From assembly GCF_016638705.1 (NCBI RefSeq), contig NZ_CP067341.1, positions 3,971,501 through 4,035,500 on the forward strand: DNA of 64,000 nucleotides, written 5' to 3'. Below are positions 44,946-55,520 of the stretch, piece after piece. Position numbers and translations under genes: made by a program. The stretch comes from Lysinibacillus agricola (GTDB taxonomy: Bacteria; Bacillota; Bacilli; Bacillales_A; Planococcaceae). How positions within the stretch are numbered: the stretch's first letter is position 1; the number at the start of each line of letters is the position of its first letter. The notes under the pieces are model-generated. The model was not told the DNA's origin and ran no database searches. It saw only the letters and a list, made by a program, of their open reading frames with translations.

Positions 44946-45926
44946 TTAACTTCCTACCTGTTCATAATTTTTTAGAAAAGCTTCTACAAAATCTGAACCG
45001 AGCTGAACATTTATTTGCTTGAAAGCTGCTATTACTGCCCCACCTATTGGTTGTAAAACTGGTGTCAAAAATTGCAATGGTAGCTCATCAGCTTGTGTGA
45101 ATTGCTGTAATTTAGGTATAAAGAAAGCTTCATTATTAAAGACGCCACCCACTAATACGACAGGTACGTTCCCTTGTTCCCAAGCCATATGAAAGTAACA
45201 TGCTTTGATCGCTACATAATATTTCTTACAAGCATCTTCAATGATGCTAATGGCAGCATGATCTCCTTTTTCTGCTACATCAAAAACATATTTGCTTAAC
45301 GGCGCCATTACTGTCCGAGGATGCTCCGCTCCATAAATACACTCTATTAATTGTGGTACATTTTCCACAGAAAAATAACGTAAAACAACGTCTGTTAAAG
45401 CTGTTGAGTCTCCTCTTCCATCATAGCTTTGAAAAATAGTTTTCAGCACTTGAACGCCTAAATCATAGCCACTTCCCTCATCATCAAAAAGATACCCCCA
45501 GCCCCCTACTCGATGAAAATGTTGCTCACTATCATAACCCATTGTGATAGCACCTGTCCCTGCAATTTGCACAATACCTGCCTTCCCAAGTGTGCCTGCG
45601 TAAAGTGCTATTAAGGCATCATTATCAACAAAAATAGCTACTGTTTTATCGACATATTGGCGTACTATTGATACTACAACTTCCTCTGCTTGTAGCTCCT
45701 TTACCCCGGCCATGCCAGCAAAACAACTATCTATGGCTGCAAATACTTGTGGATTTTGTTGTTGTAAATTCTGTAGTATATCGTGAATCGTTGACTTAAA
45801 ATACTGAACATCCATTGCTGTTGGGTTACTACGATTAGTTACTACTTTGGCGTAAATATTGCCTTGCTCATCACAAATTACTGCAGACGTTTTCGTTCCA
45901 CCACCGTCAATCGCTAATACATACAT
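44946..45926 (-). CDS. BadF/BadG-type amino sugar kinase (NagK/MurK-like)
   Basis: 326 residues of the ASKHA fold: phosphate loop IDGGGTKTSAV, second loop GTGAITMG, GGWGYLFDDEGSGYDLG and adenosine motif VLVGGVFNN. Family members phosphorylate free GlcNAc and/or MurNAc. A longer frame adds about 69 residues encoded by the repeat array, so it is not real. AAAGGAG sits before MYVLAIDGG. Separated from mupG by a terminator and the repeat. Confidence 0.85.
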   Translation of the reverse strand: MYVLAIDGGGTKTSAVICDEQGNIYAKVVTNRSNPTAMDVQYFKSTIHDILQNLQQQNPQVFAAIDSCFAGMAGVKELQAEEVVVSIVRQYVDKTVAIFVDNDALIALYAGTLGKAGIVQIAGTGAITMGYDSEQHFHRVGGWGYLFDDEGSGYDLGVQVLKTIFQSYDGRGDSTALTDVVLRYFSVENVPQLIECIYGAEHPRTVMAPLSKYVFDVAEKGDHAAISIIEDACKKYYVAIKACYFHMAWEQGNVPVVLVGGVFNNEAFFIPKLQQFTQADELPLQFLTPVLQPIGGAVIAAFKQINVQLGSDFVEAFLKNYEQVGS

Positions 45927-45947
45927 AACTATGCTCCTTTCATCTCC

Positions 45948-46117
45948 ATCAATTTCGCATTGGTGTAATTGTAGCTGTCGCTTTGCTTTCGTTACAAAAA
46001 AACATTTGTTGCTTTCGCTCAGAAAACACTTGGAGCTGTCACTTTGCTTTCGCTCAGAAAACACTTGTTGCTGTCGCTTCGCTTTCGCTACAGAAAACAC
46101 TTGCTGAATGAAGATAA
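45948..46117. repeat. Tandem core array upstream of the sugar kinase
   Basis: Three to four degenerate units with GTCGCTTCGCTTTCGC or GCTTTGCTTTCG, bounded by CATCAATTTCGCATTGGTGT and CTTGCTGAATGAAGATAAA. It lies between the mupG terminator and the kinase ribosome binding site. Confidence 0.8.
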
Positions 46118-46119
46118 AA

Positions 46120-46157
46120 AAGGGATTAAGCACTATCAGCTGATGGCTTAATCCCTT
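46120..46157 (-). terminator. Terminator of the PTS-mupG operon
   Basis: A perfect 12 bp stem AAGGGATTAAGC/GCTTAATCCCTT followed on the minus strand by T residues, ten bases after the mupG stop. Confidence 0.85.
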
Positions 46158-46166
46158 CTTCTGTAA

Positions 46167-47249
46167 TCATTTCGTAAAGCTAAATGATGCCCATGGCTGA
46201 ATCTGTGCTAATAAGAATTTTTCTTCTTCTACAACTCTCGCAACAACATTTGTTGATCCGACATTCGGCATTTCCTTTAAAACAATTTGTAGCTCACCTT
46301 TATAACGTACATCTAAATTATTATCGATTGTCACATCCCCAAATTTTAATGGGTAGATATCATGTGCAGGGAAGTCACCATTTTTATATTTCACACGAGA
46401 TTGTGTACTACGGATTACATACTCAGAAACATCCCCACGATTAAAATGTGGCTCTTTAAAAAGTACCGCTTCTTCTAAAATAGACGTCTCAGCAAACTGC
46501 TCAATCTTCAGCTCTAGCTTATAGCGATTTAATTGGCCTAATGCACGTATTTCTTCCTCCGAAGCATACATATTGCCAATAATACAATCATCTATTAAAC
46601 CAGTGTGCCATAAATCCTTAGCCTGCACAGTAATTGGCAGATGTCGATGCTCTTCTAATGTTGGCAAGCCATACTCGGTTTTCTCCCAGGGTCCAAACAT
46701 GGCATGCTGCGATGAAATCATAGCTGCTGTTCGAATATGATTAGCTTTAAATTGTTGAGACGTTTGTAAAAAATGTTGACGTGAAAGACCTGTAAAACGT
46801 CTTGGATAAAAATTATGGCAGCCAATAATATTATCTCTATTCGGTTGGTAGGATAATATATTTTCTACATATTTCGTGCCGTTACTAATATTTAACTCTA
46901 TTTTTAAATTACTAGCATCAAGAGACATAAACGCTTCTTCCTGGCCAGAGAAGCCCATATCTAAGCGTAATGCCGCTAAATGATAATGCTCCTTAAAGTA
47001 ACTAATATCTTTATAGGTTAAGCCTAAATCTTCAAAAACAGCTGGTGCAATATCAGCTGAAATGTCAAAGCCTAGCTGCTGCGCAAATTCATTTATTTGC
47101 AGTAATTTATGTCGTTCCTGATCGTTATTTAATGACATAAGACATGTAAATATTCGATCAAAACCATTGTCATGAGCGAGCTGAACATATCGCTTCATAT
47201 CTTCTAGTGTACTATGCTGAGGATATAGTGAAATCCCTAATCTTTTCAA
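46167..47249 (-). CDS. mupG: 6-phospho-N-acetylmuramidase MupG (DUF871)
   Basis: 360 residues: a TIM-barrel domain (about 1-230; GISLYPQHSTLEDMKRY, ADIAPAVFEDLG, LRLDMGFSG, NFYPRRFTGLS) and a C-terminal beta domain of about 110 residues with IQPWASFSF at the end. S. aureus MupG splits MurNAc-6-P-GlcNAc entering through a PTS. Here it follows a cellobiose-type EIIC by 25 bp. Confidence 0.88.
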   Translation of the reverse strand: MKRLGISLYPQHSTLEDMKRYVQLAHDNGFDRIFTCLMSLNNDQERHKLLQINEFAQQLGFDISADIAPAVFEDLGLTYKDISYFKEHYHLAALRLDMGFSGQEEAFMSLDASNLKIELNISNGTKYVENILSYQPNRDNIIGCHNFYPRRFTGLSRQHFLQTSQQFKANHIRTAAMISSQHAMFGPWEKTEYGLPTLEEHRHLPITVQAKDLWHTGLIDDCIIGNMYASEEEIRALGQLNRYKLELKIEQFAETSILEEAVLFKEPHFNRGDVSEYVIRSTQSRVKYKNGDFPAHDIYPLKFGDVTIDNNLDVRYKGELQIVLKEMPNVGSTNVVARVVEEEKFLLAQIQPWASFSFTK

Positions 47250-47274
47250 TTTAAATACCTCCGTTAGTTCACAT

Positions 47275-48603
47275 TTACACTTCTACTTTTTGATTTTCTG
47301 ACTCTGTAACACGCTTTTCGTTTTGAGTTTCTGATTCAGCAGATGACTGTTCATTCTGCTTCGCCATACGATTTGCCATTGATAAGAATGGTAAGTAGAT
47401 ACATACAGCTATAATAAGTAAGACAATACTAAGCACTGCCCCTCGCCAAGATGCAGTTGCTAAAAATCCATTTATAATCGGTGGCGTTGTCCATGGTGGT
47501 GCAACTGTAGCTGCCGGCACAAAGCCCCACTTCGTTGCAAAGAAAGCTATTGTTACGTTAATCATTGGTGTCAAAATAAACGGTACAAATAATACTGGGT
47601 TTAACACAATTGGAAGACCGAAAAGTAATGGTTCATTAATATTGAAAAGCCCTGGTGCTGCCGACAATTTTCCGACGGTATTATATTGCTTATTCTTTCT
47701 AGAGATAATGAATATAGCAATAATAAGTGCTATTGTCGTACCGGAACCACCCATATTGATGAAGGCATCAAAGAATGGTTTATTTACGATGTATGGTGCT
47801 ACTTCACCAGATGAAATCGCTCTTACATTCGCTTCTATAGCTGGTAAATTTATTGTTTGCATAAATGGTTCGATAATGTTAGCACCATGAACACCTAATG
47901 TCCATAAAAACGTAGGAATGAATGCTAAAAGTAAAGCTGCAATCCATGAATTCGTTAAGCCCATAAACGGCTCTTGAATTGCAGAGTAGAAAGAACCGAC
48001 AATATCAGGAAGATCGAAGCCTGCCGAAATGATTGTACGAACTAGAGCAAACAAACCAATTGTAATCATAGCAGGTAGTAACGCTGCAAATGATTTTGAA
48101 ACAGCCGGTGGTACACCATTCGGCATTTTAATTAGTAGCTTAGGATTGCCAGCCAATCTACAAAATACTTCAGTTGAGAGCAAAGCAATAATCATGGCTA
48201 TAAATAAACCACCAGTACCTGTTGTTAACCCTGTTAATCCGCCATCACCAAAGGTACCAAATGTCATATAACTTGAAAGGCCGATTACCCCGGCAGAAAG
48301 TCCATCTTTGTCGTAGCTTTTGGCAAGATTGTAAGAAATTGAAAAGGCCAATAACAGTGAGAGAATTCCGAATGTTGCTCCCCAGATACTGCCGCCCCAC
48401 TGTGTCCAAGTTTCATGCTTCCAGATAGCATCGAGCGCATTTTGATAAAATTTGATCGGCAAATTATTAACAAGAATCGCGAGTGTTCCAAGAATTGTCA
48501 ATGGCATGATCGTAATAAATCCATCTCGAATGGCAACTAAATGACGCTGATTCCCTACTCTTGCAGCAACTGGCACGAATTTCTCTTCTAAAAAACGGAA
48601 CAT
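47275..48603 (-). CDS. PTS EIIC, lactose/cellobiose family
   Basis: A 442-residue membrane permease with about ten helices. Family blocks include the N-terminal FLEEKFVPVAARVGNQRHL, IRDGFITIMPLTI, ALPAMITIG-type helix, NSWIAALLLAF, LGVHG and FNINEPLLFGLPIVLNP. The start at MFRFLEEKF has AAGGAG nine bases upstream. Classical MurNAc or GlcNAc transporters are of the glucose family, so this is a different solution. Substrate is probably a disaccharide. Confidence 0.92.
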   Translation of the reverse strand: MFRFLEEKFVPVAARVGNQRHLVAIRDGFITIMPLTILGTLAILVNNLPIKFYQNALDAIWKHETWTQWGGSIWGATFGILSLLLAFSISYNLAKSYDKDGLSAGVIGLSSYMTFGTFGDGGLTGLTTGTGGLFIAMIIALLSTEVFCRLAGNPKLLIKMPNGVPPAVSKSFAALLPAMITIGLFALVRTIISAGFDLPDIVGSFYSAIQEPFMGLTNSWIAALLLAFIPTFLWTLGVHGANIIEPFMQTINLPAIEANVRAISSGEVAPYIVNKPFFDAFINMGGSGTTIALIIAIFIISRKNKQYNTVGKLSAAPGLFNINEPLLFGLPIVLNPVLFVPFILTPMINVTIAFFATKWGFVPAATVAPPWTTPPIINGFLATASWRGAVLSIVLLIIAVCIYLPFLSMANRMAKQNEQSSAESETQNEKRVTESENQKVEV

Positions 48604-48653
48604 TTCACACACTCCTTTATTTTTATTGTGACATCAGGCTTGATGCTATTCCC

Positions 48654-48974
48654 CTATTCCCCTTTGATTCGCTCATACAACTCAATCATTTCAGTTGCTA
48701 AATCACGAAACGTAATGGCATTCATTAAATGATCCTGCGCGTGAATTAACAGCATTGATACTTCTACTTTTTCTCCCCTTGCCTCTTGTGATAATAGAGC
48801 CGTCTGAGAATGATGCGCTTCAATCAATGCATCATTAGCTAATTGTATTTTTTCCTTTGCTTTCTGAATCTGTCCTTTTTTTGCTAGCTGAATAGCTTCC
48901 ATACACTCACTTTTCGTATTACCACTATGCACAATCAGTCCCATAATGGATTCCATTAAAACTGTTTCTTCCAT
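48654..48974 (-). CDS. PTS EIIA, lactose/cellobiose family
   Basis: A 106-residue three-helix protein. The phosphorylated His is residue 78 in LLIHAQDHLMNA, and Asp81 is the trimer metal ligand. The start at MEETVLMESI has AAGGGGGC upstream. The gene lies between EIIB and EIIC. The order EIIB-EIIA-EIIC followed by mupG is one operon. Confidence 0.93.
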   Translation of the reverse strand: MEETVLMESIMGLIVHSGNTKSECMEAIQLAKKGQIQKAKEKIQLANDALIEAHHSQTALLSQEARGEKVEVSMLLIHAQDHLMNAITFRDLATEMIELYERIKGE

Positions 48975-48987
48975 TGTCGTCGCCCCC

Positions 48988-49299
48988 TTAACCAATCAAC
49001 TGTAACGCCTGCTTTAAAACATTTTCACCATTCATCATGCCGTAATCCGCCATATTGATGACATCAATTGGAAAATTCATTGCCTTGTATTTTTTTTCAA
49101 ATGTCCCTTTTAAGTAACGGACTTGTGGACCTAGTAACAACACATCCGCCGTTTTAGCAGCTAATACTTTGTCAACCTCACCTTCAGCAATCGCATAAAT
49201 ATCCGCCTCAATGTTTTGTTCTTGTGCGGCTTTTTGCATCTTTGACACTAGTAAACTAGTACTCATACCCGCTACACACACTAGCATAATGTTTTTCAT
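48988..49299 (-). CDS. PTS EIIB, lactose/cellobiose family
   Basis: A 103-residue protein with phosphorylated Cys8 in LVCVAGMSTSLL, typical of EIIB-Cel. It is the first gene of the operon; AAAAGGAG precedes MKNIMLVC. Two dre-like palindromes lie 100-220 bases upstream. Confidence 0.93.
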   Translation of the reverse strand: MKNIMLVCVAGMSTSLLVSKMQKAAQEQNIEADIYAIAEGEVDKVLAAKTADVLLLGPQVRYLKGTFEKKYKAMNFPIDVINMADYGMMNGENVLKQALQLIG

Positions 49300-49400
49300 A
49301 AAAACACTCCTTTTCATAATTAAGTTCGTCTTTCTAACTTACTTTAATTTGGTGATTTTTTAACAATGAAATCGCTTTCTTATTTTGAGAATAGCACCTA

Positions 49401-49416
49401 TTGGTATATACCACAA
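49401..49416. promoter_or_regulatory. Candidate NagR (dre) operator 1 upstream of EIIB
   Basis: TTGGTATATACCACAA, a 12-base perfect palindrome core TGGTATATACCA. GntR/HutC regulators YvoA and DasR bind sites of the type TGGTNTANACCA. Confidence 0.6.
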
Positions 49417-49504
49417 TATGCTTTTTACACCATTTACTACCTAATGAAAGGACTTCAAAAATTGGGCTATATCTTTGTTATAGACAAATAAAAGGATTTG
49501 CTCA

Positions 49505-49520
49505 ACTGGTATAGTCCAGA
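49505..49520. promoter_or_regulatory. Candidate NagR (dre) operator 2 upstream of EIIB
   Basis: ACTGGTATAGTCCAGA, a near-palindrome close to the dre consensus, 100 bases from operator 1. No other feature is visible in the 270 bp gap. Confidence 0.5.
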
Positions 49521-49571
49521 AAAAAATTCAAAAATTTTTTTTAGTTCATAACCCTACTAGAACGTTAGTTA

Positions 49572-50747
49572 TTAAAAGTACTCATAGAAGGTTGGCTTAT
49601 CGGCGGGTAATGCCATTTGCCATCGATTAATAATCTCATCAGCCAATTGTTTATTTGCATACAAGACTGCATCCTTTACCGAAAGATAGCCAACCATCAT
49701 CGCTGAAAAAAGATTAATTGGTAATGTTAACATATGCATTTCTGGGATAGAATTTGTCTCAATTATCGAGACATCTCCATTTTTATTTATTTTATATACG
49801 TGATCATTCCAACTACAAAACGTATCTTCAATTTGAATATATAACGGCTCATGAATATCGCCCCACGGATAATGTTGCATAAACCGCAAAGCATCTACTA
49901 CTCTTACCATCACATCCTGAACGACCTCTCTTGTAAACTGTGGTTCTTTAAAATAGAAGCCAAATTGATGGTCGTTAGAGGTAACTCCTTTAATGCTGCT
50001 TACACTCGCAGCATGTGACGTTATAAAACGCCAAATGGCTTGTTCTGCTAGTAAATCTTCAGCTATAAAATCATGAATCTCAAATGTTCCATCCTGAATG
50101 ATATAGCGAATATAACCTGCAATTTTATCGTCCTTAAAATATGCCGCAAAATGACTATCGGGCATCCTTCTCTCTATTCTTTTCCACCAAGCATCATCTC
50201 GAAGCATACTTCCATTATTAATGAACGCTTGTGCATTATGAAAACCCTTAATCGCCTGAAAAAGATCACGATCTGGCCATTCAAAGCTCATACGTTTTAC
50301 TACATCTAGTTGTTTTCCGAAAGAAGGAAACATCAATTGCGGAATGGTGTAATATAGCTTCTCAAAAAATAATTCCCAGCCAAAGTAACGATAAAAGGAT
50401 ACCGAAAATGGTGCTAACACAGAAATGCTTTGCCCATTCTCTTGCATGTTCTTTAGTGCCTCTGTCATAAGCTTTTTGATAATACCTTGTTGTCGATATT
50501 CAGGATAGGTTGCAACAAAACCAATTCCGCCCATCTTATAATTTTCACCATGTATCATCATATTAAGTGGCAATATTAATAACTGACCAACTACTTTATG
50601 TTCATCGTAAGCACCTAATGTTGTGCTATGCTCAACCCAATAGTGAAAATCATCGCGCCGTGCACCCGTATACTTATTTGGAAAACAATAATCTCTTAAT
50701 TGATGTACCTGTAAATAATCTTTTGGTGGAATTATTTTTATTACCAT
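49572..50747 (-). CDS. Eis-like GNAT acetyltransferase
   Basis: 391 residues with the layout of Eis proteins: an N-terminal GNAT domain with acetyl-CoA loop YPEYRQQGIIKKLM, a central second GNAT-like domain, and a C-terminal sterol-carrier-like domain (SAMMVGYLSVKDAV). Such enzymes acetylate amines on aminoglycosides, peptides or sugars. AAAAGGGGTGAT precedes the ATG. It is the last gene after ptsI in the nag operon, 41 bp away; amino-sugar acetylation is only a guess. Confidence 0.82.
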   Translation of the reverse strand: MVIKIIPPKDYLQVHQLRDYCFPNKYTGARRDDFHYWVEHSTTLGAYDEHKVVGQLLILPLNMMIHGENYKMGGIGFVATYPEYRQQGIIKKLMTEALKNMQENGQSISVLAPFSVSFYRYFGWELFFEKLYYTIPQLMFPSFGKQLDVVKRMSFEWPDRDLFQAIKGFHNAQAFINNGSMLRDDAWWKRIERRMPDSHFAAYFKDDKIAGYIRYIIQDGTFEIHDFIAEDLLAEQAIWRFITSHAASVSSIKGVTSNDHQFGFYFKEPQFTREVVQDVMVRVVDALRFMQHYPWGDIHEPLYIQIEDTFCSWNDHVYKINKNGDVSIIETNSIPEMHMLTLPINLFSAMMVGYLSVKDAVLYANKQLADEIINRWQMALPADKPTFYEYF

Positions 50748-50788
50748 ATGTTAGATCACCCCTTTTCAATACTGAATTTTCGTGCAAT

Positions 50789-52507
50789 TTAAGATAAGCT
50801 TAATAGATTATTTTTCACATATTCCTCAACCTCTGAGGCCGTGGATAACAGTAAAATACGTTCATTGTGTGGCATTAGCTGCTGTTTCGAAAGCTTGGCG
50901 ATATGCGCACGAGTCTTTAGAATAGAGGAAGCACTCATGGAAAACTCGTTTAGTCCAAACCCAAGTAAAATCGGTAATGCTATTTCATCTGCTGCCATTT
51001 CACCACACATGCCTACCCATTTTCCATGGTGCTTTGCTGCATCAATGACATTTTTTATAAGTCTTAAAACAGCAGGATGGTACGGTTGGTATAAATAAGA
51101 AACATTTTCGTTCATCCGATCTGCTGCTAATGTGTACTGGATTAAATCATTTGTTCCAATTGAGAAAAAATCCACTTCCTTTGCAAATATATCTGCAATG
51201 ATGGCAGCCGACGGAATTTCAATCATCATCCCTACATCAAGCGTTTCAGACACAGGATAACCGTCACTTTCCAAATTTTGTTTTTCCTCAAGCAAAATTG
51301 CCTTCGCCATTTTAAATTCATCCAATGTAGCAATCATTGGAAACATAATTTTTAAATGGCCGTAAGCGCTTGCTCTTAGTAATGCGCGAAGCTGTACACG
51401 AAATATTTCTTGTTGCGTTAAACTGATTCGAATCGCTCGATAGCCAAGAAAAGGGTTCATCTCAGTAGCAAGCTTCAAATAAGGGAGTTGCTTATCGCCA
51501 CCAATATCTAATGTTCGAACAATCGTTGGCTTGCCTTGCATTTTCTCAAGTACGCTTTTATATGCTTGATACTGCTCCTCCTCTGTAGGTAGCTCCTGTC
51601 GTCCCATATATAAAAATTCCGTACGAAACAGGCCAATACCATCTCCACCAGCATTTGTGACCATATCCACATCTTCTGGCTTTCCTATATTCCCAGCAAT
51701 TTCTATAGAAAATCCATCCGCACTTAAGCTTGGTAACGAACGATACTGAAGAAGTTCTTCATGCTCTTCATTGTGTAAATGTTGCTGCTGCCTATAAAAG
51801 CTAGATACTTCCGATGTAGCGTTGACAATAATCTTGCCATTCGTTCCATCTAAAATAATCGGTGCTCCATGTTGAATATCTTGCGTGGCATGTTTCGTCC
51901 CTACTACCGCTGGAATCTCTAATGTTCGTGCGAGAATAGCAGAATGAGATGTTTTGCCACCAATATCCGTTATAAAGCCCTTTACATACTTTGTATCTAG
52001 CATCGCAGTCATAGACGGTGTTAAATCTTTAGCGATGATAATAACATCAGAGGTTAAACGATTCATATCCACCATTTCAACCCCTAACAAGTGGGCTAAT
52101 ACTCGTGTAGAGACATCTCGAATATCGGCAACTCGCTCCTGCATATAGACATTGTCTAGCCCTTCAAACATAGCTATAAACATAGTTGATACTTCATCTA
52201 ATGCAAATTCAGCATTCATCCCTGTTTGAATTTTCGCCTCAATAGCTGCCAGCATTTCAGGATCTTCTAGCACTAATAGATGTGCCGCAAAAATGGCAGC
52301 CTTTTCAGCACCAAATTTCTCCTGAGCTATTTCATAGATTTCTTGAAGTTCCACTTTCGTTTTCACTATAGCTGCCTTGAATCTTTCTAGTTCAGCATGT
52401 ACATCAGTGACCTTCACCGCCTCAAAAGATAAATCTGGTTCCTTTAAACAATAAGCATTCGCAAAGGCAATGCCCTCAGACACAGCAATTCCTTGTATTT
52501 CTAACAT
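50789..52507 (-). CDS. ptsI: Phosphoenolpyruvate-protein phosphotransferase (Enzyme I)
   Basis: 572 residues. The phosphorylated His is in GGKTSHSAILAR and the PEP-binding domain contains GIGLFRTEFLYM, MMIEIPSA, FSIGTNDLIQYT and the catalytic Cys in GMCGEMA. It passes phosphate from PEP to HPr. Its ATG overlaps the ptsH stop. It lies inside the amino-sugar operon rather than in a glucose ptsGHI locus. Confidence 0.97.
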   Translation of the reverse strand: MLEIQGIAVSEGIAFANAYCLKEPDLSFEAVKVTDVHAELERFKAAIVKTKVELQEIYEIAQEKFGAEKAAIFAAHLLVLEDPEMLAAIEAKIQTGMNAEFALDEVSTMFIAMFEGLDNVYMQERVADIRDVSTRVLAHLLGVEMVDMNRLTSDVIIIAKDLTPSMTAMLDTKYVKGFITDIGGKTSHSAILARTLEIPAVVGTKHATQDIQHGAPIILDGTNGKIIVNATSEVSSFYRQQQHLHNEEHEELLQYRSLPSLSADGFSIEIAGNIGKPEDVDMVTNAGGDGIGLFRTEFLYMGRQELPTEEEQYQAYKSVLEKMQGKPTIVRTLDIGGDKQLPYLKLATEMNPFLGYRAIRISLTQQEIFRVQLRALLRASAYGHLKIMFPMIATLDEFKMAKAILLEEKQNLESDGYPVSETLDVGMMIEIPSAAIIADIFAKEVDFFSIGTNDLIQYTLAADRMNENVSYLYQPYHPAVLRLIKNVIDAAKHHGKWVGMCGEMAADEIALPILLGFGLNEFSMSASSILKTRAHIAKLSKQQLMPHNERILLLSTASEVEEYVKNNLLSLS

Positions 52508-52770
52508 TCCTCACCAATTCCTTTAGAAACAATTAGTTCTGTTACTGTTTGAAAAAGCTGCTCAGCATCGGGTCCCTCTGCTGAAATTTCTACAATACTT
52601 TCAGGTGCTATTCCTTGTGCCATAACGCCCATAATTGATTTTAAATTGACCGATTTCTCTTTATAGGTTAACTGAACTTCACACTCAAATGGTGTTACAG
52701 CAGTTACAAGTAACGCTGCTGGCCTAGCATGTAATCCTTCTGGCGTTGTTATTTTAAACAATTTCTTCAT
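52501..52770 (-). CDS. ptsH: Phosphocarrier protein HPr
   Basis: 89 residues. His14 in GLHARPA is the PEP-dependent site (His15 in other HPrs). Ser45 in NLKSIMGV is the HPr-kinase site, so it can serve carbon catabolite repression with CcpA. The start MKKLFKI has GGAGGGAT upstream. It is coupled to ptsI. Confidence 0.96.
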   Translation of the reverse strand: MKKLFKITTPEGLHARPAALLVTAVTPFECEVQLTYKEKSVNLKSIMGVMAQGIAPESIVEISAEGPDAEQLFQTVTELIVSKGIGEEC

Positions 52771-52787
52771 CGATATCCCTCCGCTTG

Positions 52788-53507
52788 TCATTTAAAGTTA
52801 ATACGATGCTGATAATAGGCAATCATGGTCTCATTATGAGACAAATCCGAATCAACATTATTACTTTTAAAAACTGGTAATGCTTCGACAGATATTGCCA
52901 TGTTCTCAATGATTTCACTGAATAATGCATTTAAAATAATAGAACCAATAACTGTAGAGGATGGTGCATACTGTATTTCATTGTGACGAAGCAAACCATC
53001 GCCTATTGGTATATGCGTATCGATAACTAGATCCACTACATCCTCTAAGCGCTGCTCACTTCGATGACGTGTCGGTTGTTCACGGTAAGCAAGAGATTGC
53101 AGAGACATAACAAGTACCCCTGATTCTTTCGCTAAAAATGCTACATCTATAGGCGCTTGATTTCTCCCAGATGTCGATATAACAATGCAAACATCATTTT
53201 CATGAAAATCAAAATGATCTTTATATTGTTCAATTATAGTCGGGTCTTTCTCGTTTGTAGATGATGTCATAGCTCCTGCATGTAATGTTAAGGGTTCAAT
53301 AATTATAGGACGTACAGGTACAAGCCCTCCCGCACGATAAAATGCGTCCTGTGCTAAAAGGTGAGAATGGCCACAACCAAATAATTGGACAATCCCTCCG
53401 CGTTGAAGCCGTTGCACAATTAATTGAGCGGCTTCTGTTATTTGAGCATATTCTTGCTCCTTCACGACCTGCATTAGTTTTTGTATTTCTAGAAAATATG
53501 CATCCAT
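52788..53507 (-). CDS. SIS-domain phosphosugar protein (COG4821/UPF0309-like)
   Basis: 239 residues with one SIS domain: LFGCGHSHLLAQDAFYRAGG, ISTSGRNQAPIDVAFLA and IGDGLL near the end. This family binds phosphosugars but has no settled reaction. It is not MurQ by its motifs (no DASECPPT-like segment) and not NagB. It sits between nagR and ptsH, where nagB lies in B. subtilis. It may be a MurNAc-6-P etherase or GlcN-6-P deaminase analogue. AAAGGTGATC precedes the ATG. Confidence 0.85.
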   Translation of the reverse strand: MDAYFLEIQKLMQVVKEQEYAQITEAAQLIVQRLQRGGIVQLFGCGHSHLLAQDAFYRAGGLVPVRPIIIEPLTLHAGAMTSSTNEKDPTIIEQYKDHFDFHENDVCIVISTSGRNQAPIDVAFLAKESGVLVMSLQSLAYREQPTRHRSEQRLEDVVDLVIDTHIPIGDGLLRHNEIQYAPSSTVIGSIILNALFSEIIENMAISVEALPVFKSNNVDSDLSHNETMIAYYQHRINFK

Positions 53508-53511
53508 AGGA

Positions 53512-54246
53512 TCACCTTTTAATTTCACTAATGAATTTGTATCGATCAGCTCGATAAGTACTTCGCACAAGCTCAAACGGAATTCCATCTGATAAATAAC
53601 TTGTACGTTTAATAATTAACACAGGTGCAGTATGATTAATTTGCAGAAATTTACTATCCTCTTTCGAAACAATTGCTGCCTCCATTTGCTGAATAGCGTT
53701 TCCAATTTTTTGATGGAATTTTGCTTCAATTAAGGCATACAATGATCCCATTATTTTCTTTTCATCTAATTCAGGATATACTTTTACCGGAATATACGTT
53801 CTTTCGATTGCCATTGGCTTGGAATCTGCACTACGAATTCGTACAACGAAGAATACCTCTTCGCCTGGCTCTAACATTAAATCTCTTGCAATATCAGCGG
53901 GTGGTACGATTTTTTCAAAGCGTAAAACTTTACTGCTTGGTTCCATTCCTCTAGCCCGCATATCCTCTGTGAAACTTGTTAATCCTTTTAGCGGTTGCTC
54001 TAATTTTGGATTAGCGACATATGTACCTCTCCCTTTTTCACGATACAGCAATCCGCTATTGACTAAATTTGTAATCGATTGACGAACAGTCATTCTACTA
54101 ACATCAAACTGCATAGAAAGCTCTCGTTCAGAAGGTATATTTTCACCGATTTTGTATTCCTCTAAATAAATACGTTGTTTAATGATCTCTTCTATTTGTA
54201 TATAGATAGGTATATGAGAATTTTTATCTAACAAGTCTTGCACCAT
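53512..54246 (-). CDS. nagR: GntR/HutC-family regulator NagR (YvoA-like)
   Basis: 244 residues: an N-terminal winged helix (IPIYIQIEEIIKQRI, IPSERELSMQFDVSRMTVRQ) and a UTRA effector domain ending YRADRYKFISEI. YvoA/NagR represses nag genes and is released by GlcN-6-P or GlcNAc-6-P. It starts 13 bases after nagA; MVQDLLDK is the likeliest start though a TTG four codons on is possible. Candidate operators lie at 49401, 49505 and 55484. Confidence 0.9.
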   Translation of the reverse strand: MVQDLLDKNSHIPIYIQIEEIIKQRIYLEEYKIGENIPSERELSMQFDVSRMTVRQSITNLVNSGLLYREKGRGTYVANPKLEQPLKGLTSFTEDMRARGMEPSSKVLRFEKIVPPADIARDLMLEPGEEVFFVVRIRSADSKPMAIERTYIPVKVYPELDEKKIMGSLYALIEAKFHQKIGNAIQQMEAAIVSKEDSKFLQINHTAPVLIIKRTSYLSDGIPFELVRSTYRADRYKFISEIKR

Positions 54247-54259
54247 CCTTATCGCATCT

Positions 54260-55423
54260 TTACTTACATTTCTCAAATACAACTTTACCTCGACAAATAG
54301 TTTTTTGTACATTTAAATTTTCATCTAGTAATACAAAATCTGCATCATAGCCTTCTGCAATACGACCTTTAGTTGCAAGCTGTAATTGCTTAGCAGCATT
54401 CGTAGAGGACATTGCGACAATTTCTTGCAATGAGCAATTGGTGATTGCTTTCATATTTTTTACTGCTTGTTCCATCGTTAACACACTACCAGCTAAAGCC
54501 CCATTAGATAAATGAGCTCCGTCCTTAGAAACATGAACGGTTTGACCACCTAAATCATAATCACCATAATGTAAGCCTTTTGCCCGCATCGCATCGGTAA
54601 TTAAAATAATGCCCTTTGCGCCTTTCATACGATACGCTAGTTTTACAGCTTGAGGATGGCTATGCACGAAATCTACGATAATTTCGACCTTCACCTGATC
54701 CTCTAAAAGCACTGCTCCAACGACACCTGGATTGCGATGATGGAAAGGGCGCATTTGGTTATATAAATGTGTCGCCTGCCTTATTCCCAATGCTACTGCC
54801 CTATCCACCTCCTCAATTGTTGCGTCTGAATGGCCAATGGAAGCAATAATATTTAAATCCTTTAATGCTTCAATAAACGTAAAACCTCCCTCTACCTCAG
54901 GAGCAATTGTTACTTGTTTAATGCGTTGCTTACTTATTTTCTGCCAGGATGCGAATTGCTCAATAGACGGTAAAATAATGTACTCTATTGGCTGAGCGCC
55001 TGCCCGTTTTTTCGATACAAATGGCCCCTCTACATGTATACCTAATAAGCTTGCCTCATCATCATTATTTTCAAATTGGGCAACATTAGCTAAAGCGCTT
55101 TCAATTGCTTCTATAGATTGCGTCATAGTAGTAGCAAGGAAGCCTGTAACGCCTTCCTGAACTAAAGAGCGTGCCATTTGATGTAAAGCTAATTGCGTAG
55201 CATCCATCACATCATGCCCAGCAGAGCCATGTATGTGCATATCAACATAGCCGGGTAACAGTAACCAATTTTTATCTTTTCCATCTATATAGTGCTCGGC
55301 CTTATCAGATAAGTTATGACTTATTTTAACAATCCTACCATTATCAACGAATAAGTCGCCCTTAAACGGTGTTTCATCATGATTGACTATCGTAACATTA
55401 GATATTAAAAGCGTATTCTTCAA
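54260..55423 (-). CDS. nagA: N-acetylglucosamine-6-phosphate deacetylase
   Basis: Removes acetate from GlcNAc-6-P. 387 residues, amidohydrolase fold: HIHGSAGHDVMDA (near residue 64), metal Glu in GIHVEGPFVSKKRAGA, GHSDATIEE, His in FVHSHP and the catalytic Asp in LITDAMRAKG. First gene of the nagA-nagR-SIS-ptsH-ptsI-GNAT operon. Confidence 0.96.
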   Translation of the reverse strand: MKNTLLISNVTIVNHDETPFKGDLFVDNGRIVKISHNLSDKAEHYIDGKDKNWLLLPGYVDMHIHGSAGHDVMDATQLALHQMARSLVQEGVTGFLATTMTQSIEAIESALANVAQFENNDDEASLLGIHVEGPFVSKKRAGAQPIEYIILPSIEQFASWQKISKQRIKQVTIAPEVEGGFTFIEALKDLNIIASIGHSDATIEEVDRAVALGIRQATHLYNQMRPFHHRNPGVVGAVLLEDQVKVEIIVDFVHSHPQAVKLAYRMKGAKGIILITDAMRAKGLHYGDYDLGGQTVHVSKDGAHLSNGALAGSVLTMEQAVKNMKAITNCSLQEIVAMSSTNAAKQLQLATKGRIAEGYDADFVLLDENLNVQKTICRGKVVFEKCK

Positions 55424-55483: not shown

Positions 55484-55520
55484 TTGGTATAGTTGTCTAT
55501 ACCAATTATATACGCTTTTA
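55484..55520 (-). promoter_or_regulatory. nagA promoter with dre-like operator
   Basis: TTGGTATAG TTGT CTATACCAA at 55484-55505 is a 9+4+9 palindrome. The minus strand reads ATTGGTATAGACAACT, close to known dre sites, and overlaps the end of a TATAAT (-10) box. This places NagR directly at the nagA start. Confidence 0.65.

What the first reader, a model, noticed from the sequence alone, without database searches (positions are those of the whole stretch)
44946..55423. Muropeptide-sugar locus built on a cellobiose-type PTS with MupG, without MurP or MurQ
In S. aureus, MupG works with MurP (glucose-family EII) and MurQ. Here MupG is fused in operon with EIIB, EIIA and EIIC of the lactose/cellobiose family, plus a BadF-type kinase, NagA and NagR. 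The likely path is uptake of a MurNAc-GlcNAc disaccharide by a different transporter, splitting by MupG and rescue of the freed sugar by the kinase. This would be an alternative cell-wall recycling system.
Basis: partly seen in the sequence, partly recalled or inferred. Interest (0 to 1): 0.75.

Follow-up and report, generated by a model that had tools for sequence, protein, structure and literature searches.

The report
Chitobiose-type sugar uptake cluster in Lysinibacillus
This Lysinibacillus gene cluster most likely imports and splits a GlcNAc disaccharide (the building block of chitin) rather than a cell-wall muramic-acid disaccharide; a closely similar system has been shown genetically in Lacticaseibacillus, so it is a variant of something known.

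Summary
The genes are as described: NagA, a GntR regulator, EIIB/EIIA/EIIC of the cellobiose class, a MupG-family (GH170) hydrolase and a BadF-type kinase, all on the minus strand. HPr, EI, a UPF0309 SIS protein and an Eis-like acetyltransferase lie in the same run. No other PF02378 EIIC (so no MurP) was found in the genome, but a MurQ was, beside an ABC transporter and a kinase. The muramic-acid reading is weakened: the GH170 protein lies in a cellobiose-PTS clade, apart from nearly all MurQ-only loci; its EIIC groups with EIICs of a DUF3284-type cluster; 4 of 14 cluster-bearing Lysinibacillus genomes have no MurQ; dre-like operators precede both halves. A 2026 paper shows that a cellobiose-type PTS, a GH170 enzyme and NagA are needed for N,N'-diacetylchitobiose growth in L. 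paracasei. Best reading: a nag-controlled (GlcNAc)2, possibly also GlcNAc, uptake unit with its own EI/HPr and a GlcNAc kinase; substrate untested. The UPF0309 protein keeps the NagS catalytic residues; its function in Bacillota is open.

The parts
54260..55423 (-). NagA-type GlcNAc-6-phosphate deacetylase (amidohydrolase)
   Evidence: PF01979 99 bits; NagA name inferred, no NCBIfam scan of this protein
55493..55504 (.). dre-like operator upstream of NagA (TGGTATAGACAA on the minus strand)
   Evidence: 1 mismatch to TGGTMTAKACCA; same word upstream of NagA in L065 and L070, not found in L067, L079 or L074
53512..54312 (-). GntR/UTRA regulator, NagR-like
   Evidence: PF07702 143 bits, PF00392 69.7 bits; no NCBIfam model above cutoff, name NagR inferred from context
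52788..53588 (-). UPF0309 SIS-domain protein, function unknown; NagS catalytic residues conserved (true start may lie further in, the ORF overlaps GntR by 77 bases)
   Evidence: NF002805 245.9 bits; 3cvj 111 bits, NagS 9eol 105 bits; residues
52501..52791 (-). HPr phosphocarrier
   Evidence: TIGR01003 84.3 bits
50789..52507 (-). Enzyme I of the PTS
   Evidence: TIGR01417 763 bits
49572..50747 (-). Eis-like GNAT acetyltransferase, role unknown
   Evidence: PF13527, PF17668, PF13530
49402..49413 (.). dre-like operator TGGTATATACCA upstream of EIIB
   Evidence: 0 mismatches; an exact site upstream of EIIB in the window and 8 relatives, as TGGTATAGACCA in L072
49507..49518 (.). second dre-like operator upstream of EIIB (TGGACTATACCA)
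   Evidence: 1 mismatch; present in the window and 8 relatives, with 2 mismatches in L074
48988..49317 (-). PTS EIIB, lactose/cellobiose class
   Evidence: PF02302 78.6 bits
48654..48995 (-). PTS EIIA, lactose/cellobiose class
   Evidence: PF02255 124.7 bits
47275..48612 (-). PTS EIIC, cellobiose class; the only PF02378 EIIC found in the genome
   Evidence: TIGR00410 396.5 bits; 276 bits to EIIC 3qnq
46167..47249 (-). GH170 (MupG/DUF871 family) 6-phospho-glycosidase
   Evidence: PF19200 280.5 bits; 1x7f 368 bits; cellobiose-PTS clade
44946..45926 (-). BadF/NAGK-type amino-sugar kinase (corrected start)
   Evidence: PF01869 115.8 bits; nearest solved chain 8zo3, MurNAc/GlcNAc kinase, 130 bits; start from relatives

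Best explanation
A nag-controlled catabolic unit for a beta-1,4 GlcNAc disaccharide, most likely N,N'-diacetylchitobiose. EI and HPr encoded here pass phosphate from PEP to EIIA and EIIB. EIIC imports the disaccharide and phosphorylates it at O6 of the non-reducing sugar. The GH170 enzyme cleaves it to GlcNAc-6-P and GlcNAc. The BadF kinase turns GlcNAc into GlcNAc-6-P. NagA deacetylates both to GlcN-6-P, which feeds cell-wall precursors or, through NagB elsewhere in relatives, glycolysis. The GntR protein represses both halves through dre-like operators. In genomes where this is the only EIIC it may also take up GlcNAc. Shown here: gene content, order, clades, operator-like words and conserved catalytic residues. 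Inferred: substrate, each reaction, regulation. The roles of the UPF0309 and GNAT proteins are not explained.
For: GH170 tree of 96 proteins: window inside a 45-row cellobiose-PTS clade (support 100/98); 43 of 44 MurQ-only rows lie on the other side; three context labels need 8 changes against a shuffled mean of 31.1, 0 of 200 shuffles as low, 14 unlabelled rows not counted. EIIC tree of 40: window-type EIICs join L112, L113, L149 and L107 (100/99), none of the 8 MurQ-linked EIICs on that side; DUF3284 confirmed in L112. L. paracasei chbC, chbE (GH170) and nagA mutants fail or are defective on diacetylchitobiose (PMC12791066). MurQ is absent in 4 of 14 cluster-bearing Lysinibacillus genomes (G014, G063, G093, G133; listed 99-100% complete). 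Kinase and NagA in the run complete a GlcNAc-only route. Dre-like words before EIIB in the window and 8 of 8 relatives examined. GH170 invariant residues kept.
Against: No substrate was tested. MurQ is present in trans here and in 10 of 14 cluster-bearing genomes, this one included. Eight cellobiose-clade GH170 loci carry MurQ and share the window's clade-specific residues, so clade alone does not fix the substrate. Two rows break the GH170 split: L130 (MurQ only) at the base of the cellobiose side, L167 (cellobiose PTS) on the MurQ side. In the EIIC tree the MurQ label is not significantly clustered (57 of 500 shuffles as low) and the root is a midpoint. Some MurQ-bearing loci also have a GntR gene nearby (L086, L094), so the regulator class does not separate them. 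The kinase's nearest solved relative is named for both MurNAc and GlcNAc, and the kinase is missing in 3 of 8 window-type loci (L067, L078, L079). EIIC is 37% identical to 3qnq. A DUF871/cellobiose-PTS operon of B. coagulans took up cellobiose in E. coli (PMC6271610). L. sphaericus hardly grew on GlcNAc plates in one study (PMC3648570). The operator words were chosen after seeing them, and the relatives are close.
Confidence: 0.6

Rival explanations
1. One reading: the cellobiose-type PTS imports MurNAc-GlcNAc, GH170 gives MurNAc-6-P and GlcNAc, the kinase rescues GlcNAc, and MurQ encoded elsewhere (with the ABC/kinase/RpiR-like locus) converts MurNAc-6-P to GlcNAc-6-P for NagA.
For: MurQ present in this genome and in 10 of 14 cluster-bearing genomes; eight cellobiose-PTS/GH170 loci in other Bacilli contain MurQ, one of them with a confirmed AnmK (L092; L091 has a similar-sized gene in that place); the characterised family founder is a 6-phospho-N-acetylmuramidase (PMC6262408).
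Against: Four cluster-bearing genomes have no MurQ; window outside the clade with 43 of 44 MurQ-only loci; EIIC on the side without MurQ-linked EIICs; dre-like operators; MurNAc has a plausible route of its own here, ABC/kinase/MurQ.
Confidence: 0.22
2. The system carries another beta-glucoside such as cellobiose, or mainly free GlcNAc, and GH170 is a 6-phospho-beta-glucosidase.
For: B. coagulans CELO2 (PTS genes with DUF871 celX) gave cellobiose uptake when expressed in E. coli (PMC6271610, passages); in 6 of 20 Lysinibacillus genomes judged distinct this is the sole PF02378 EIIC, and a GlcNAc PTS was reported in B. sphaericus 2362 (PMC3648570 passage).
Against: NagA and dre-like sites point to acetylated amino sugars; free GlcNAc alone would need neither GH170 nor kinase.
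Confidence: 0.12
3. The UPF0309 SIS protein is a second MurNAc-6-P etherase that replaces MurQ, making the cluster a MurQ-free muropeptide-sugar pathway.
For: The nine NagS residues tested are kept in the window protein and in all 49 aligned rows (43 distinct sequences, window included, counted), apart from Thr for Ser91 in 2; NagS is a dehydratase related to MurQ (PMC12680351; that both chemistries are C3 eliminations is my inference); three distant homologues have no or negligible GlcNAc-6-P dehydratase activity, so their substrate is open; four cluster-bearing genomes lack MurQ.
Against: No anticorrelation of UPF0309 and MurQ in 151 genomes: both 23, UPF0309 only 28, MurQ only 36, neither 64 (recounted); G069 and G044 carry MurQ and UPF0309 within 15 kb (L152, L157); 37 of 60 UPF0309 genes lie within 10 kb of a NagB-family gene (recounted).
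Confidence: 0.05

Closest known systems
chb/nag clusters of Lacticaseibacillus paracasei BL23 (PMC12791066)
   Same: cellobiose-class EIIA/B/C plus a GH170 hydrolase, with NagA and a NagR; genetically required for N,N'-diacetylchitobiose
   Different: L. paracasei has ChbR and DUF3284 ChbD, nag genes elsewhere and no kinase in the operon; here NagA, GntR, UPF0309, HPr, EI, GNAT and kinase are in one run
S. aureus mupG-murQ-murP-murR (PMC6262408)
   Same: GH170-family enzyme acting after a PTS that phosphorylates a disaccharide
   Different: different PTS class, different GH170 clade, no MurQ or MurP in the cluster, GntR instead of MurR
Bacillus cereus EIIC 3qnq (that it is the chitobiose transporter of Cao et al. 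2011, cited in PMC12791066, is recalled)
   Same: cellobiose-class EIIC, aligned over residues 4-428 of 445
   Different: about 37% identity; falls on the other side of the EIIC tree
B. sphaericus GlcNAc PTS operon (Alice et al. 2003; not held; seen only as cited in PMC3724859 and PMC3648570; its gene order is recalled)
   Same: by recall, nag genes co-transcribed with ptsHI; probably the front half of this cluster
   Different: by recall, the EII was not identified there; this cluster offers a candidate
B. coagulans CELO2 (PMC6271610)
   Same: cellobiose PTS genes with a DUF871 gene
   Different: linked to cellobiose; no nag genes in the passages seen

Membership tests
GH170 / MupG (PF19200 + PF05913) | both Pfam domains above cut-off over the full protein | tested here: met
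   280.5 and 127.3 bits
GH170 / MupG (PF19200 + PF05913) | residues invariant in both GH170 clades kept | tested here: met
   D66, R95, D97, N146, Y148, E199, R202, R271, D273, E319 and others
S. aureus-type mup/mur system | GH170 in the MurQ/MurP-linked clade | tested here: not met
   the S. aureus protein itself was not knowingly in the tree, the clade is named from its gene context
S. aureus-type mup/mur system | MurP-type EIIBC and MurQ in the operon | tested here: not met
   MurQ elsewhere in genome
S. aureus-type mup/mur system | activity on MurNAc-6-P-GlcNAc | not testable with these tools
   no assay
chb-type PTS + GH170 (L. paracasei) | cellobiose-class EIIA, EIIB, EIIC with adjacent GH170 | tested here: met
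chb-type PTS + GH170 (L. paracasei) | EIIC grouping with chb-type EIICs | tested here: inconclusive
   joins L112, L113, L149 of unnamed family f26 (100/99), DUF3284 confirmed in L112 only; L. paracasei's own protein was not knowingly in the tree
chb-type PTS + GH170 (L. paracasei) | DUF3284 protein (ChbD) in cluster | tested here: not met
   none among the 9 proteins scanned with Pfam (EI and HPr not scanned); the paper says not all chbD homologues cluster with chbE
chb-type PTS + GH170 (L. paracasei) | required for growth on diacetylchitobiose | not testable with these tools
   no experiment
NagS (GlcNAc-6-P dehydratase) | essential residues H53, R64, E94, D179 | tested here: met
   H74, R85, E113, D197 in the window protein
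NagS (GlcNAc-6-P dehydratase) | close similarity to Streptomycetaceae NagS (58.7% identity or more in the paper) | tested here: not met
   only 105 bits to 9eol; paper figure
NagS (GlcNAc-6-P dehydratase) | dehydratase activity | not testable with these tools
   window protein untested; three homologues of 26-36% identity had none or negligible activity in the paper

The most novel reading that the evidence does not exclude
The UPF0309 SIS protein is a second, unrecognised MurNAc-6-phosphate etherase (or a closely related C3-elimination enzyme), so that Lysinibacillus lineages without MurQ still recycle MurNAc-GlcNAc through a cellobiose-class PTS and a GH170 hydrolase under nag control.
Probability: 0.05. 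Interest if true: 0.75.

Novelty: new variant of a known kind. Interest (0 to 1): 0.32.

Why it matters
If right, a genus reported not to use hexoses and pentoses carries, in some genomes as its only PF02378-type PTS transporter, a compact nag-controlled unit for GlcNAc disaccharides. That would give a candidate for the EII that (by recall) was left unidentified in B. sphaericus, and show that a MupG-family annotation should not be read as muramic acid recycling. The UPF0309 family, with a complete NagS-like active site and an open function in Bacillota, becomes a clear enzymology target.

Tried and rejected
UPF0309 as a replacement for NagB: first favoured because no NagB-family match was found in this genome. 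Dropped: all 15 other same-genus genomes searched have a PF01182 match, 37 of 60 UPF0309 genes lie within 10 kb of a NagB-family gene, and a QueG-like neighbour of nagB in relatives also gave no match here (that tool says an empty answer alone shows nothing), so a missing stretch is possible. Own stretches guessed by position for the nagB neighbourhood did not contain it.

UPF0309 as a MurQ substitute: kept only as the low-probability novel case, see rivals.

Residue differences between the GH170 clades (P10/L, S164/N, N226/D) do not separate MurQ-bearing from MurQ-free loci inside the cellobiose clade, so they were not used for specificity. Structure prediction was not run: it would not have fixed the substrate. 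Alice et al. 2003 was not held. Searches for print: Lysinibacillus with chitobiose and phosphotransferase gave 1 paper; GH170 gave 37, 15 listed; UPF0309, PRK02947 and one phrase gave none. Only open-licence PMC papers are held, so these say little about absence from print.


Full report
What is there. On the minus strand of 44946-55423 the order is NagA, GntR/UTRA, UPF0309 SIS, HPr, EI, Eis-like GNAT, EIIB, EIIA, EIIC, GH170 (MupG family), BadF-type kinase. Neighbouring ORFs from NagA to EI overlap; the largest gap, 254 bases, lies before EIIB. Two dre-like words lie in that gap and one before NagA. In the whole window the 12-base pattern with up to two mismatches is met 12 times against 5.85 expected (0 shuffles reach 12); the only exact match and the only two single-mismatch matches are these three. 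The pattern was chosen after I had seen the words. The two words before EIIB recur in 8 of 8 relatives examined, which are close kin; no shuffle was run there. The site name rests on passages on dre sites for NagR/DasR (PMC3648570); the 12-base consensus is recalled. A hairpin with a T run follows the GH170 gene in the window and in L065, L070, L072 and L078 (read by eye), so the kinase may depend on read-through. The kinase start should be 45926.

The genome. The window lies in a 5.29-Mb single-contig genome; the six named loci with a close UPF0309 relative are all Lysinibacillus. It has one PF02378 EIIC, this one. MurQ is present elsewhere, in a run of PBP4B/class-C-like protein, ABC binding protein, permease genes, BadF-type kinase, MurQ and an RpiR-like gene (the ABC and kinase hits are below their NCBIfam cutoffs, and the second permease and the regulator were named by reading, not by a family scan of their own). 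So MurNAc has a plausible route of its own.

Relatives. Of 24 handles searched, 22 have a GH170 gene. Two handles duplicate others, judged by identical coordinates (G512 of G133, so named L. sphaericus SDF0037; G513 of G093, so named L. xylanilyticus SR-86), and two are of other genera. Of the 20 Lysinibacillus genomes left, 18 have it (not G102, G115). For 14 of these 18 there are MurQ data: above cutoff in 10, absent in 4 (G014, G063, G093, G133), listed as 99-100% complete. In 6 of the 20 the only EIIC is this one (G000, G063, G093, G145, G510, G515); the others have further EIICs, or none (G102), or only another (G115).

Clades. PF19200 is found in 122 of 398 class-wide genomes. I fetched a hand-picked subset of those matches and, with loci, built a tree of 96 proteins, window included. 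One side holds loci beside MurQ, often with a 450-500-aa protein that in the one case tested is a MurNAc-PTS-like EIIBC (L127, 337 bits, cutoff 516). The other holds loci beside cellobiose-class PTS genes, with the window (support 100/98 for its 45-row clade). Exceptions: L130 (MurQ only) near the base of the second side, L167 (cellobiose PTS) in the first. Inside the second clade 8 loci also carry MurQ, needing 6 changes (9 of 500 shuffles as low): L086, L090, L091, L092, L094, L096, L097, L102. MurQ was confirmed by NCBIfam above cutoff in the three tested, L086, L094 and L097; the other five rest on similarity to this genome's MurQ. GH4 was confirmed in L086 and L094, AnmK in L092. None is of the window type. 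A tree of 40 EIICs puts window-type proteins with L112, L113, L149 and L107 and all 8 MurQ-linked EIICs plus 3qnq on the other side (100/99; midpoint root), but the MurQ label as such is not significantly clustered there (57 of 500 shuffles as low).

Literature. Kluj et al. (PMC6262408, abstract and passages) characterised MupG in S. aureus and expect remote DUF871 clades to differ in function. Garcia-Telles et al. (PMC12791066; abstract, passages, sections 15, 20, 21) showed that chbC, chbE and nagA are needed for diacetylchitobiose growth. The B. coagulans paper (PMC6271610, passages) links a DUF871 operon to cellobiose. Li et al. (PMC12680351; abstract, passages, sections 10 and 13) characterised NagS. 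PMC3724859, PMC3648570 and PMC7750189 were seen in passages only.

UPF0309. The window protein matches 3cvj and NagS. The residues essential in NagS are present in it and in all 49 aligned Bacillota rows, of which 43 are distinct. By distribution it is not a simple stand-in for NagB or MurQ; its role is open.

Verdict. I file the cluster as a variant of the chb-type PTS/GH170 system with nag control and its own EI, HPr and kinase. The substrate stays an inference.

Noticed in passing
L086, L090, L091, L092, L094, L096, L097, L102: Eight GH170/cellobiose-PTS loci in other Bacilli also carry MurQ (GH4 confirmed in two, AnmK in L092): better candidates for a cellobiose-class MurNAc-GlcNAc system than the window.
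   Followed up: partly
52788-53588: UPF0309 SIS protein with a complete NagS-like active site but open function in Bacillota; often beside NagB-family genes (37 of 60).
   Followed up: partly
G000:C1:309601-310473 (L058 and L002): MurQ in a run with ABC-transporter-like genes, a BadF-type kinase, an RpiR-like gene and a PBP4B/class-C beta-lactamase-like protein: a separate MurNAc route.
   Followed up: partly
G000 whole genome: No NagB-family match and no match for a QueG-like neighbour protein from G063, at 96% completeness: a stretch may be missing from the assembly.
   Followed up: partly
46009-46103: 35-bp tandem repeat, 2.7 copies, between the GH170 gene and the kinase; it creates a probably false GTG start for the kinase.
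   Followed up: yes
L067, L078, L079: In these three Lysinibacillus loci neither the kinase nor EI was called; G127 (L068) has a second nag locus with HPr and EI.
   Followed up: no
49572-50747: Eis-like GNAT acetyltransferase inside the PTS cluster, present in the relatives' loci too, role unknown.
   Followed up: no
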